A stretch of DNA of 64,000 nt from NCBI RefSeq assembly GCF_010119975.1, contig NZ_CP048222.1, positions 5,040,501 through 5,104,500 on the forward strand, given 5' to 3'. A model generated the notes under the pieces. The model saw only the letters and a list, made by a program, of their open reading frames with translations, did no database searches and was not told the DNA's origin. Below are positions 14,556 to 49,423 of the stretch, piece by piece. Source of the stretch: Rhodocytophaga rosea. Its GTDB lineage: Bacteria > Bacteroidota > Bacteroidia > Cytophagales > 172606-1. The position numbers were made by a program, and so were the translations under genes. Numbering within the stretch: position 1 is the first letter of the stretch; each line of letters starts with the position of its first letter.

Positions 14556-14635
14556 AAATCTGTTTTATAAAGTAAAATGACATGAGTTTAATGATATTTT
14601 ACACAAATTGAATTATTCTCTTATTGAGAAATTAA

Positions 14636-14800
14636 CAGTGCGGTAGGTGGTGCAGCAACAGTGCGGACTTTTTTGGCTTTGTGGGTAAGCCGGAGGAATG
14701 TGTGATGATTTTATCTGGCGTAAAAAAGTCTCTGTTGGTGCTGCCCTTTTGTTTTGTTACTTTTATTTTGGACATGCAAAATAAAAGTAAGGACGGCCTA
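14636..14800 (-). repeat. structured dispersed element, type A copy 1
   Basis: Read on the minus strand, this starts GGCCGTCCTTACTTTTATTT and forms a 14-bp stem (14777-14790 with 14757-14770) closed by a 6-base loop. The body has a second stem, GACTTTTTT with AAAAAAGTC, flanked by CAGCACCAAC and TGTTGCTG. The same plan is found at 21558 and 36565 with different stem sequences. It lies in the 317-bp gap between the DUF5009 and GH20 genes, which holds nothing else recognisable. Confidence 0.8.
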
Positions 14801-14872
14801 AGTATTTAAACAGGTAGCAGTTATCAGTTATAACAATCTCTAAAATCTATTATTTAGTATCTCTATTGCCTT

Positions 14873-21557: not shown

Positions 21558-21723
21558 GCGCCGTCTTACTTTTCTTTTGCTTGTCCAAAAGAAAAGTAAC
21601 AAAAGAAAAAGACCGCACCAACAAAGCCTGTTTTACGCTTGGATAGGCCAAGCCCACAACCCTCCGGCCATCCGCACAGGCCAAAACCGGCCACACTGTT
21701 GCTGCACCATCCACCGCACTCTT
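21558..21723 (+). repeat. structured dispersed element, type A copy 2
   Basis: It starts GCGCCGTCTTACTTTTCTTT and forms a 14-bp perfect stem (21566-21579 with 21586-21599, loop CTTGTC). The central pair is C-G here instead of the A-T of the other type A copies, a compensatory change. The body ends GGCCACACTGTTGCTGCACC like copy 3. It is the left half of a 355-bp region whose right half is a type B copy in opposite orientation. The region 21400-21948 contains no gene. Confidence 0.8.
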
Positions 21724-21790
21724 GCTTTGTCTATAATCCTAATAAAAAGTATTTATTGTTATTAAATAAAAATCAAATAAATATTCCTTG

Positions 21791-21910
21791 CGTGATGGCC
21801 CGAAAAAACAGCGGGCAATGCGCAGGCTTGCAGCGGGGAAGCATTGTTTTTTCTAGATTTTTCTTTGCTTACTTTCTTTGTAGCAATGACAAAGAAAGTA
21901 AGGACGGCGC
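21791..21910 (-). repeat. structured dispersed element, type B copy 1
   Basis: Read on the minus strand, it starts GCGCCGTCCTTACTTTCTTT and forms a 13-bp stem (21889-21901 with 21869-21881). A second stem then pairs GAAAAAACA with TGTTTTTTC around a G/C-rich core (GCGGGCAATG). The head matches type A in the first 15 bases, while the body is a different module shared with 45490-45608. Confidence 0.8.
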
Positions 21911-21944
21911 ATAGGGAATCAATTAACTGTTTGAATATAAGTAA

Positions 21945-22553
21945 TTAAACACAATTAAGTATAATATTTTCATCTACTTCAAGTTTTTTAAAATCAAGTT
22001 TAAAGTAAGTACCCAATCCTGAAAAGATGGTATAAAGTGCCTCCTTAAGCGCTTCTACAGACAGATAGTCTTCGGCTTTGAGCCAATGATATTTCACCTG
22101 CTTCCAAAATCGTTCGATCCTGTTAAGATGAGGACTATACTTAGGCAGCAAAAAGATGTATAATCCTTTCTGTTCCCATTCTTCTTTTTTGACTTCCCAT
22201 AGGCCACATGTATGCCAGGAGGCGTTGTCTAAGACTATGACAGTAAACTTGGAAATAGATGTTGAGAAGGCCTCTACACATTCAATGATAAAGTCAGCGT
22301 TTAGACTCCCACTTTTCTGATAAGTAAGCAACTCATTATTTGTACTTAACAAGCCAAATACATTTATCCTTGTACTTCTTTGGGATAAAATAGGGGCGTG
22401 TTCGCCTTTTTTGATCCATCCATAAGGTACACAAGGGGTAAGGCAAAACCCTGATTCGTCTCCAAAATATAAATCTATACTGCCTGTCTGTGCCAAATAA
22501 AGCAAAGCATGTAATCGCTTGACTTTCTGCTCATATGCTTCTTTGTTTTGCAA
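21945..22553 (-). CDS. IS630-family transposase, catalytic DDE part
   Basis: The C-terminal half contains the DDE triad: YFGDESGF, VLDNASWH and LPKYSPHLNRIERFWKQ. Its productive frame extends upstream without an ATG through IDYRWKRFRKWIKPL, so it is most likely fused to the HTH part by a -1 frameshift at an A7 run on the minus strand. The stop lies at or just past the inner end of the left terminal repeat. All three acidic residues are present. Confidence 0.88.
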   Translation of the reverse strand: MQNKEAYEQKVKRLHALLYLAQTGSIDLYFGDESGFCLTPCVPYGWIKKGEHAPILSQRSTRINVFGLLSTNNELLTYQKSGSLNADFIIECVEAFSTSISKFTVIVLDNASWHTCGLWEVKKEEWEQKGLYIFLLPKYSPHLNRIERFWKQVKYHWLKAEDYLSVEALKEALYTIFSGLGTYFKLDFKKLEVDENIILNCV

Positions 22554-23032
22554 TGGCTTTATCCATTTACGGAAACGTTTCCATCGGTAGTCAATTTTTT
22601 TAAAAACCGCTTCAAGGTCATCTCACTCATAGCCGTGCCTAATTTAGCTTCTATCTCTCGCTTAGCTAATTTAAGTTGTTGTTTTTCTTTCTCTATGCTA
22701 TTTTCCACTACTTCAACATGGGTAGCATTACTGGTAGTAAGGATGGGTTTTCTGCCTTTCCCTTTTTGGTTCTTTAACCCTACCACACCTGTTTTCTCAA
22801 AGCGATCAAACCACTTATAAATACTTAACTGACTTACTTGAAAAATGCTTGCTAACTTCTGTACTTGATAGCCTTGATTGGATAACAGTATACATTGGCA
22901 ACGGTTACGTTCCTGATAACTTTTACTATCTTTATGAATCTTCTCTAAGTCTTGTTTTTGCTTGTCTGTAATCTTCTTGATATAACGCATAAGCAAAGAT
23001 ACAATTTGCCAAAATCTTATACTTAATTGTGT
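21949..23032 (-). mobile_element. IS630-family insertion sequence, about 1.08 kb
   Basis: Terminal inverted repeats of 22 bp with one mismatch (ACACAATTAAGTATAA.ATTTT at 21949-21970 and its complement at 23011-23032) enclose two transposase frames. A GTAATTAA octamer lies just outside each end, adjacent on the left and 8 bp away on the right, so the true outer limits may extend slightly further. It is not closely similar to the IS630-family element at 9348. It sits between the GH32 and susD genes. Confidence 0.85.
22559..22996 (-). CDS. IS630-family transposase, helix-turn-helix part
   Basis: This 145-residue N-terminal half has a helix-turn-helix (VQKLASIFQVSQLSIYKWF, about 45-63) and a second DNA-binding segment (KREIEAKLGTAMSEMTLKRF). 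The frame ends TTDGNVSVNG-stop shortly after TTAAAAAAATTG. Slipping back one base at that run gives KKIDYRWKRF, which continues into the DDE frame and makes a full transposase of about 340 residues. Confidence 0.88.
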   Translation of the reverse strand: MLMRYIKKITDKQKQDLEKIHKDSKSYQERNRCQCILLSNQGYQVQKLASIFQVSQLSIYKWFDRFEKTGVVGLKNQKGKGRKPILTTSNATHVEVVENSIEKEKQQLKLAKREIEAKLGTAMSEMTLKRFLKKLTTDGNVSVNG

Positions 23033-23135
23033 ACTCTTACTTAATTACTAAATAAAATTGAAAGTGAGATTGATGCGTAAATAATAAATCGCTTCACTGA
23101 TAACTAACAACGAACAACCAATGAACGATTCTCTG

Positions 23136-36450: not shown

Positions 36451-36564
36451 ATAAAGTGATTAGGTTAAAAAGTAGTGTATAGGTATAGCTGAACTCTCCA
36501 GAGAATTAATAATTAAATTTGTGAACAAAGTTTTTTGTATAAATAAAAAGATTCTTGATTACCT

Positions 36565-36730
36565 AGGCCGTCCTTACTTTTATTTTGCTTGTCCAAAATA
36601 AAAGTAACAAAACAAAAGGACAGCACCAACAAAGCCGGTTTTACGCTTGAAGGTGGCTGCTCGCACAAACTCCGGCCTTCACACTGGCCAAAACCGGCCA
36701 CACTGTTGCTGCACCATCCACCGCACTCTT
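36565..36730 (+). repeat. structured dispersed element, type A copy 3
   Basis: It starts GGCCGTCCTTACTTTTATTT and forms a 14-bp stem (36573-36586 with 36593-36606, loop CTTGTC). The body stem pairs GCCGGTTTT with AAAACCGGC and is flanked by CAGCACCAAC and TGTTGCTG. The end, TGCTGCACCATCCACCGCAC, is identical to copy 2. It lies between the penicillin acylase and TolB-like genes, both on the minus strand. Confidence 0.85.
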
Positions 36731-36789
36731 TCATAGTCTACATTTTTGAAAAATGGCCAAGTATCTGTCCTTATCAGATTTAATAAAAT

Positions 36790-45396: not shown

Positions 45397-45489
45397 CTTA
45401 TGGTAGTATTGAGTAGTGAGTACTAATACTCTAACCCAGCTGTTTTTTGAATAGATTATCAGATAGGTAAAATAAAAACAAAACTCCAT

Positions 45490-45608
45490 GCGCGGGAGCC
45501 CGAAAAAACAGCGGGCAATGTGTAGGCATTGAGCGGGGAAGCATTGTTTTTTCTTGAACTTTCTTTGCTTACTTTCTTTGTGTCAAGACAAAGAAAGTAA
45601 GGACGGCG
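45490..45608 (-). repeat. structured dispersed element, type B copy 2
   Basis: Read on the minus strand, it starts CGCCGTCCTTACTTTCTTTG and forms a 13-bp stem (45588-45600 with 45569-45581, 6-base loop). The second stem is GAAAAAACA with TGTTTTTTC and the G/C-rich core matches copy 1 at 21791. It occupies part of a 392-bp gap (45397-45788) that holds no gene and separates a sensor kinase from its regulator. The rest of the gap is AT-rich. Confidence 0.8.
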
Positions 45609-45788
45609 TAAGAAGAAAACAAACAACTGCTTCAAAATAAGTTAAATGATTGACAATGAACGATTAAAAATATCTGGATAGAGTAAACTACTAATTATAA
45701 AAATGTATATATCTGCTCTATAGTATATTCGATTGATGGTCAACTATTAATAATTACCCATTTTTAATTATAATTATAAACCCAGCTT

Positions 45789-48985: not shown

Positions 48986-49090
48986 GGGCTTAAGTTAACA
49001 CATAGAAATCTAATCTAATCTGTAATCCGCTTTATCAGAATCAGAACTTATTTTTGGGTATCGGGTAAAGACTAATTGTTTGAATAGTAA

Positions 49091-49215
49091 GGCCGTCTTT
49101 ACTTTTATTTTGCTTGCCCAAAATAAAAGTAACAAAACAAAAGGGCAAAATGAAAAACGCTTCAACGCTCTTAGCCTGCGCTCACCCCGCTTTTCATTTG
49201 TCCCCTCGCGCATTG
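49091..49215 (+). repeat. structured dispersed element, type A head with a third body
   Basis: It starts GGCCGTCTTTACTTTTATTT and forms the same 14-bp stem as type A (49099-49112 with 49119-49132, loop CTTGCC). Its body differs: GGGCAAAATGAAAA pairs with TTTTCATTTGTCCC, enclosing a C-rich loop. It lies in the 545-bp region 48986-49530 between the crp-like and padR-like genes. That region also holds the AT-rich control region of padR. Confidence 0.75.
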
Positions 49216-49423
49216 AATTTTTGTTTGATTTATTATTGAGCTGATCTACTTCTACGATGATACAATCATCATGTTTACAGATTCGAAAGCCAGACATTAA
49301 TGATACAGAAAAGTACCAAGCATATTAGGCCTATAGTCAGTTCTATCATCCCCACCAAAAATGTATCTCATCCGGACAGTTATTGCACCAGAATGTTCAG
49401 TTGTAATACAACCTATCTGATTA

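What the first reader, a model, noticed from the sequence alone, without database searches (positions are those of the whole stretch)
21558..21910. Opposed type A and type B elements form a 353-bp unit with inverted ends
Seen: a type A copy reads inward from 21558 and a type B copy reads inward from 21910. The outer ends GCGCCGTC and GACGGCGC are exact complements, followed by TTACTTT and its complement. The unit therefore looks like a MITE with about 15-bp terminal repeats, each end forming its own hairpin, around an AT-rich centre. It sits next to a full IS630-family element. Inference: single copies elsewhere may be halves or deletion forms of such a unit.
Basis: partly seen in the sequence, partly recalled or inferred. 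Interest (0 to 1): 0.55.

Follow-up and report, generated by a model that had tools for sequence, protein, structure and literature searches.

The report
Paired triple-helix repeat between two genes
The 353-base unit is two related, oppositely facing copies of a dispersed bacterial repeat whose ends look built to fold into a small knotted triple helix; the same design recurs in very distant bacteria and resembles the E. coli 'Box C' repeats, but what copies it is unknown.

Summary
In detail: 21558-21910 is a type A and a type B repeat facing inward with near-identical ends, and such pairs recur in this genome (five strict; 0.1 expected) and, 281-754 bp apart, in Bacteroidota and Pseudomonadota. 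The MITE reading is not supported: no target duplication seen, no related IS ends, no linked transposase found, and many single copies share one inner end point. What is conserved is a fold: a pyrimidine-purine hairpin, then a purine tract that mirrors its purine arm (77 of 80 printed rows; 3 fit both orders; none direct; T in the arm becomes C, 14 of 14), then bases pairing with the loop (69 of 100 types, 18% when shuffled). That is the signature of an intrastrand triple helix locked by a pseudoknot. Wobbles point to the outward strand. Closest kind: E. coli Box C/PIT repeats, also inverted A+B pairs; this is an A/T-rich, long-bodied, pseudoknotted variant. Here the outward strand is the message strand in 37 of 40 single copies between same-direction genes; two Selenomonad genomes show the reverse. 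Function, RNA or DNA, and mobilising enzyme are unproven.

The parts
21558..21910 (.). whole unit: A half and B half facing inward (inverted dimer)
   Evidence: sequence; related pairs in the same genome
21554..21565 (+). left outer end; only about 12 nt outside P1 are shared by copies of this genome, consensus CTTAcGCCGTC
   Evidence: profile of 45 ends
21566..21599 (+). A half, hairpin P1 (14 bp, loop 6)
   Evidence: compensatory changes in A copies
21601..21609 (+). A half, purine tract AAAAGAAAA, mirror-symmetric with the P1 purine arm; on the minus (outward) strand the presumed third strand of the triplex
   Evidence: family tests
21610..21613 (+). A half, bases complementary to the P1 loop (GAC with GTC at 21583-21585, plus C21586/A21610, a G.U on the outward strand): pseudoknot helix, short in this copy
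   Evidence: sequence; family tests
21614..21735 (+). A half, body with stem P2, ending at TCTATA (21730-21735)
   Evidence: covariation; inner end
21736..21785 (.). AT-rich centre of the unit
21786..21859 (-). B half, body with stem P2 (about 21802-21810 with 21845-21853)
   Evidence: covariation, 6 of 11 P2 pairs changed on both sides
21860..21866 (-). B half, mirrored tract (TTTCTTT as printed on the + strand): presumed third strand on the + (outward) strand
   Evidence: family test
21868..21902 (-). B half, hairpin P1 (14 bp, loop 7)
21903..21914 (-). right outer end (GACGGCGC and neighbouring bases)
14633..14802 (-). single A copy (P1 14757-14790)
36560..36743 (+). single A copy (P1 36574-36607)
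45468..45613 (-). single B copy (P1 45568-45601)
49087..49228 (+). single copy with an A-type P1 and a B-type body

Best explanation
The unit is an inverted dimer of a dispersed, non-coding repeat of the Box C/PIT (intrastrand triplex) kind. Shown from sequence: each monomer has hairpin P1, a mirrored purine tract, a loop-complementary segment and a covarying stem P2. Inferred: when the outward-reading strand (body, then P1, then outer end) is single, as RNA or as single-stranded DNA, P2 forms, the pyrimidine tract lies in the major groove of P1 along its purine arm (T.A-T, C+.G-C, and G opposite the T-A inversion), and the loop pairs back to lock it as an H-type pseudoknot. In this bacterial family the outward strand is usually the message strand behind a gene, so the most likely present role is a compact 3'-UTR structure that resists 3' exonucleases, as REPs and ENE-type triple helices do. 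Copies spread by an unidentified enzyme acting in trans without target duplication.
For: Mirror rule: of 80 printed rows that show a tract beside an asymmetric stem, 77 are mirrored, 3 fit both orders, 0 are direct only (counted; five genomes; G066 has both stem orders, 20 and 29 rows, each mirrored); in fetched loci 18 mirror, 0 direct, 2 ties. Base code in 165 units: A-A 1059, G-G 125, T-C 16, other 17. Pseudoknot: 69 of 100 distinct loop/segment types pair by at least 4 bp; 18% mean, 34% maximum in 1000 shuffles. Covariation score and cells changed on both sides: reached by 0 of 500 shuffles and by no slide in the A and B alignments. Wobble, read inward, distinct types: A.C 13 against G.T 3 in the pseudoknot, 9 against 2 in P1. 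Gene context: outward strand equals message strand in 24 of 26 single copies between same-direction genes in this genome and 13 of 14 in relatives. No Y1 transposase (PF01797) match in carriers G003 and G005 or in 6 of 22 other carriers.
Against: No structure, RNA or mobility data. In two Selenomonad genomes the orientation is reversed (inward strand = message strand in 11 of 15 and 8 of 10), so a 3'-UTR RNA role cannot be general. Looser mirror scan: 31 mirror, 3 direct, 9 ties; the 3 direct cases turn on where the tract is cut. 'Further pair types' did not exceed shuffles (401 and 362 of 500 as high), and pairs changed on both sides did so moderately (2 and 9 of 500). Wobble asymmetry is not seen in the first B alignment (A.C 13, G.U 11; A copies 32 and 8), numbers are small and copies related. 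B copies with loop CATTGCTA, the window's included, pair by only 3 bp; the window's A copy has 3 bp plus one wobble. A simple terminator scan of the unit found none. The inward strand could itself form a purine-motif triplex.
Confidence: 0.6

Rival explanations
1. DNA-level intrastrand triplex as proposed for Box C: the structure forms on single-stranded DNA at forks (either strand), stalls replication and causes local rearrangement; RNA plays no part.
For: Same topology as Box C; mirror symmetry does not tell RNA from DNA; orientation to genes differs between clades; the segment between two copies is inverted in one Paraburkholderia caribensis strain against two others.
Against: Wobble asymmetry favours one strand (not seen in B copies); 37 of 40 co-orientation with genes in this family is not expected from a symmetric DNA role.
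Confidence: 0.25
2. REP/REPIN-type element moved by a RAYT or IS200-like Y1 transposase acting on single strands.
For: Inverted dimers, no target duplication seen, intergenic, hairpin next to GCCGTC in this genome; [quoted passage not shown]
Against: No P1 in the Y1 loci fetched, which are the best matches and not all of them: L031-L035 and L093-L120, L287-L298. Two relatives at 100% completeness that carry the repeat have no PF01797 match, nor do 6 of 22 other carriers including G061 and G066.
Confidence: 0.1
3. MITE of an IS630/Tc1-type or other DDE element.
For: Inverted ends; IS630-like element about 28 bp away; TA lies just outside GCC at many ends (T in 36 and A in 32 of 45).
Against: IS ends differ from the unit's ends; the TA is part of a longer shared end (CTTA); each end is about 150 bp of conserved structure; single copies are common and many share one inner end.
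Confidence: 0.05

Closest known systems
Box C / PIT / TM_ECO intrastrand triplex repeats (Holder et al. 2015, PMC4666352; abstract, introduction, methods, results sections on the database start, abundance, G/C against A/T motifs and E. coli, and first part of the discussion read; other sections not)
   Same: Pyrimidine stem, loop, purine stem, short spacer, mirrored purine stem on one strand; intergenic; in E. coli MG1655 the five inverted pairs each join a type A with a type B; not associated with mobile elements there. Three E. coli K-12 pairs inspected face inward.
   Different: Box C is G/C-rich, about 35 nt; the three pairs seen span about 100 bp, without a long body and, by eye, without loop-to-downstream pairing of 4 bp. 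Here stems are A/T-rich, the loop between tracts is about 8 nt (that paper's search allows 1-6), there is a pseudoknot, a covarying body, and pairs of 281-754 bp.
CGTC- and GTAG-tagged REPs, BIMEs, REPINs (Di Nocera et al. 2013, PMC3733652; abstract and passages)
   Same: Palindromic, intergenic, often downstream of genes, dimers in opposite orientation; CGTC REPs also lack a known transposase; CGTC precedes the hairpin in this genome.
   Different: CGTC REPs have 8-9 bp stems, loops of 4-5 and a tail; here stems are 12-14 bp, with a mirrored tract, pseudoknot and body, and the tag is absent in the relatives' copies seen.
ENE / MALAT1-type RNA triple helices, also in eukaryotic transposable-element RNAs (PMC12501189, search listing with start of abstract only; older work recalled)
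   Same: Pyrimidine strand in the major groove of a purine-containing stem, protecting RNA of a mobile element.
   Different: ENEs use a poly(A) or A-rich tail; here all three strands lie within one pseudoknot. No RNA evidence here.
Rfam RF02421 Bp1_684 (Burkholderia sRNA; PMC3521395, passages)
   Same: Weak hits (27.2 and 25.5 bits, cut-off 44) on the outer flanks of a Paraburkholderia pair; reported there as an RT-PCR-detected transcript.
   Different: Covers only the outer end; below the gathering score; no hit in the window.

Membership tests
Box C / PIT intrastrand triplex repeat | pyrimidine-purine hairpin followed by a mirrored purine tract on the same strand | tested here: met
   77 mirror, 3 both, 0 direct of 80 printed rows with a tract; 18:0, 2 ties
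Box C / PIT intrastrand triplex repeat | TM_ECO consensus CCCTCNCCC-GGGNGAGGG-GGGNGAGGG | tested here: not met
   A/T-rich sequence; consensus from PMC4666352
Box C / PIT intrastrand triplex repeat | loops of 1-6 nt between stems (ITxF search rule) | tested here: not met
   about 8 nt between the pyrimidine and purine tracts of P1 (rule)
Box C / PIT intrastrand triplex repeat | inverted A+B pairs in intergenic DNA | tested here: met
   three E. coli pairs for comparison
Box C / PIT intrastrand triplex repeat | triplex formed in vitro | not testable with these tools
   needs CD, NMR or probing
CGTC-tagged REP | CGTC directly before the stem | tested here: met
   GCCGTC before P1 in this genome's profile; absent in the relatives' copies seen
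CGTC-tagged REP | 8-9 bp stem, loop of 4-5 nt, short tail | tested here: not met
   14 bp stems, loops of 6-7
RAYT-mobilised REP/REPIN | copies flanking a Y1 (RAYT) gene | tested here: not met
   no P1 in the Y1 loci fetched, which are only the best matches; carriers without PF01797
MITE of IS630/Tc1 type | ends matching the ends of an IS | tested here: not met
   compared with the neighbouring IS630-like element only
MITE of IS630/Tc1 type | TA or other target-site duplication | tested here: inconclusive
   TA is part of a longer shared end; no direct repeat beyond the symmetry of the ends evident in 45 Burkholderia-type pairs; no clean empty site found
RNA triple-helix stability element (ENE-like) | pyrimidine third strand parallel to the purine arm of a stem | tested here: met
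   on the outward strand, from sequence only
RNA triple-helix stability element (ENE-like) | located near the 3' end of a stable RNA | tested here: inconclusive
   behind genes in message orientation in family f1, reversed in two Selenomonad genomes

The most novel reading that the evidence does not exclude
A cross-phylum family of bacterial repeats carries a pseudoknot-locked pyrimidine triple helix as a working RNA 3'-end element, a bacterial counterpart of the ENE triple helices of transposable-element RNAs, kept by selection on all three strands and dispersed as inverted pairs.
Probability: 0.3. Interest if true: 0.85.

Novelty: new variant of a known kind. Interest (0 to 1): 0.6.

Why it matters
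In the one paper on intrastrand triplex repeats in bacteria that I read, the case rests on sequence potential, test-tube folding and local instability, with no stable triplex seen in cells. Here the third strand is tracked by evolution: when the purine arm is asymmetric the tract is its mirror, when the arm has T the tract has C, and the loop pairing co-varies, in Bacteroidota, Pseudomonadota and Selenomonads. That makes an open question (do such triplexes matter in cells, as RNA or DNA, and on which strand?) directly testable with clean mutants: mirror against direct, and loop swap.

Tried and rejected
Carrier element: the wider-spaced pairs looked at (L066 2.1 kb, L070 0.7 kb, L164 4 kb) hold ordinary genes or other copies, no transposase by inspection of the ORFs; L172 and L224 were not inspected. 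RAYT link: no P1 near the Y1 genes fetched. IS630 MITE: ends differ. Rfam: nothing at the gathering score in the window, only weak partial hits. Viral contigs (one exact A-type pattern), phages (one Paraburkholderia pair) and E. coli (its P1 part): no match. Empty-site comparison among Paraburkholderia megaplasmids: flanks too diverged for a clean empty site. Intrinsic terminator reading: none in the unit, one weak candidate in another copy. Direct-repeat or strand-exchange explanation of the purine tract: rejected by the mirror test. First alignment of B copies with four G003/G005 copies (A1) misaligned P2; those 4 of 22 rows were dropped. The A count used 20 of the 23 A copies aligned. In one search, 15 of 201 units had no readable tract and were dropped. 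In one search, 196 of 373 hairpins had no tract beside them (I take many to be the same hairpins read from the other side; not counted). Printed rows without a tract were left out of the 80. My first mirror test (21 mirror, 33 direct, 39 ties) took a leading AC into the tract and counted hairpins read from the wrong side; it is not used. Gene calls come from a simple ORF rule; the count for the mostly G/C-rich genome-contig loci (singles ++ 7, -- 17, +- 11, -+ 12) goes against the family's bias and is not trusted either way; G059 gave ++ 2, -- 1, +- 1. Papers: 9 searches; the prior art came from the eighth.

Full report
OBSERVATION. The 353-bp unit is as described: GCGCCGTC and TTACTTT at both ends with one extra base on the right, a perfect 14-bp hairpin at each end, an AT-rich centre. 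BLAST of the unit in its own genome (G000, 8.98 Mb, one contig) gives 53 matches, 40 of 97 candidates having been scored. Strict inward pairs in the fetched G000 loci: five (window, L002, L004, L023, L028), where 70 random ends would give 0.11 on average.

HOW FAR IT REACHES. The repeat, paired and single, is in the same genus and family; 12 of 39 relatives searched have a match to the unit, those outside the family only weak ones. Over all loci held at that point, 73 neighbouring ends face inward: 4 at 29-32 bp (a symmetric hairpin seen twice), 65 at 281-754 bp (at least four of them the same place fetched twice) and 4 farther apart. Facing outward within 800 bp: 3. In tandem within 800 bp: 2. 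So an inward pair is the standing arrangement where copies lie close together, most regularly at about 400-560 bp in Burkholderia relatives, where the pairs I printed are long imperfect palindromes.

THE FOLD. Read inward, a half is: pyrimidine arm, loop, purine arm (P1), 1-4 nt, purine tract, then a short segment, then a body. (1) The segment is complementary to the loop: of 100 distinct loop/segment types, 69 pair by at least 4 bp, against a mean of 18% and a maximum of 34% in 1000 shuffles. (2) The purine tract is the mirror of the purine arm. Most arms are symmetric and say nothing; asymmetric ones decide. A search of 45 carrier genomes with a pattern that leaves the tract free matched in 17; the printed part of the list covers five. 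Rows printed with a tract: G061 17, G066 49, G059 6, G049 1, G068 7. Of these 80, 77 are mirrored, 3 (one in G061, two in G059) fit both orders, none is direct only. G066 has both AAAGAAAA (29) and AAAAGAAA (20) arms, each with the other's order in the tract. In fetched loci: 18 mirror, 0 direct, 2 ties. A looser scan gives 31, 3 and 9; two of the 3 are symmetric tracts cut short and the third an A-run followed by G, so they turn on where the tract is cut. (3) Where the arm has T (CAAAATAAAA) the tract has C, 14 of 14. Over 165 units: A-A 1059, G-G 125, T-C 16, other 17. Duplication gives direct repeats and inversion gives reverse complements; mirror relations are what a third strand in a helix groove needs. 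On the outward strand the code reads T.A-T, C.G-C and G opposite T-A, the pyrimidine-motif code (the G.T-A triple is recalled from Dervan's work, not looked up). (4) P1, the pseudoknot and P2 carry compensatory changes. A copies (20 sequences, 38 pairs): 93.8% paired, 41 cells changed on both sides against 13.3 in shuffles, 0 of 500 as high; 10 pairs changed on both sides against 7.0 (2 of 500); further pair types not in excess (401 of 500 as high). B copies (18 sequences, 24 pairs): 96.5%, 37 against 11.3 (0 of 500), 9 against 6.3 (9 of 500), further types not in excess (362 of 500). (5) Read inward, mismatches are more often A.C than G.T: distinct types 13 against 3 in the pseudoknot and 9 against 2 in P1; all units 27 against 3 and 13 against 2. 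A.C on one strand is G.U or G.T on the other, so selection appears to act on the outward strand. In the first alignments the A copies agree (32 against 8) but the B copies do not (13 against 11). Small numbers; related copies are not independent.

CONTEXT. In G000, copies detected as single, between genes: both neighbours in the outward-strand direction 24, both against 2, upstream only 3, downstream only 5; relatives 13, 1, 5, 2. Copies lie behind a gene with the outward strand as message strand. In two Selenomonad genomes the opposite holds (against 11 and 8, with 4 and 2); in four of the six copies shown there, P1 starts 4-9 nt after a stop codon. Orientation is therefore lineage-specific, and a message-strand role cannot be the whole story.

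BOUNDARIES AND MOVEMENT. In G000 only about 12 nt outside P1 are shared. A copies often end at TCTA(TA): 13 of 23, 10 of them outside detected pairs (less one chance match). No direct repeats beyond the ends' own symmetry were evident in 45 Burkholderia-type pairs. No clean empty site was found. No P1 lies in the Y1 transposase loci fetched, and some carriers lack PF01797 altogether. How copies arise is open.

WHAT IT IS. Prior art: Holder et al. 2015 (PMC4666352; abstract, introduction, methods, several results sections and part of the discussion read) describe E. coli Box C/PIT repeats with the same three-tract order; in MG1655 all five inverted pairs join a type A with a type B. Three E. 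coli pairs inspected face inward as here. I file it as a new variant of the intrastrand-triplex repeat kind, distinguished by A/T-rich stems, pseudoknot lock, long covarying body and long pairs. I did not find this family or its pseudoknot in the papers searched; the library lacks most subscription papers.

LIMITS. All is sequence inference. The window's own copies are average to weak members (3-bp locks). RNA against DNA is not settled.

Noticed in passing
window 21939-23053: IS630-like element with separate HTH (22559-22996) and DDE_3 (21945-22553) frames on the minus strand and its own inverted repeats.
   Followed up: partly
L024, L026, L030 (own genome): Copies in which the P1 hairpin has another hairpin module in or in place of its middle; another module (CAACTACGTTGGTTCTCTTCGGCTCTCGCC...) is shared by A and B copies between P1 and P2, so parts are swapped between types.
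   Followed up: no
G066 C46:3977-4446: Three copies in tandem, same direction, 213 bp apart, in a Selenomonad genome with about 50 asymmetric-stem copies in 2.5 Mb.
   Followed up: no
L281 21.4-23.4 kb against L283: In Paraburkholderia caribensis MBA4 the segment between two copies is inverted relative to strains 852011 and MWAP64, as expected from recombination between opposed copies.
   Followed up: partly
L087, L089 (G003): Outside P1 these copies run into degenerate direct repeats 65-67 bp apart (AAGCAAAAAATGAAGAGGCC...).
   Followed up: partly
L128 4800-4872 and 5387-5460: Outer ends of a Paraburkholderia pair weakly match Rfam Bp1_684, a reported Burkholderia sRNA; that sRNA may be part of such a repeat.
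   Followed up: partly
window 21639-21914: A 91-codon ORF crosses the unit; such repeats may create spurious gene calls.
   Followed up: no
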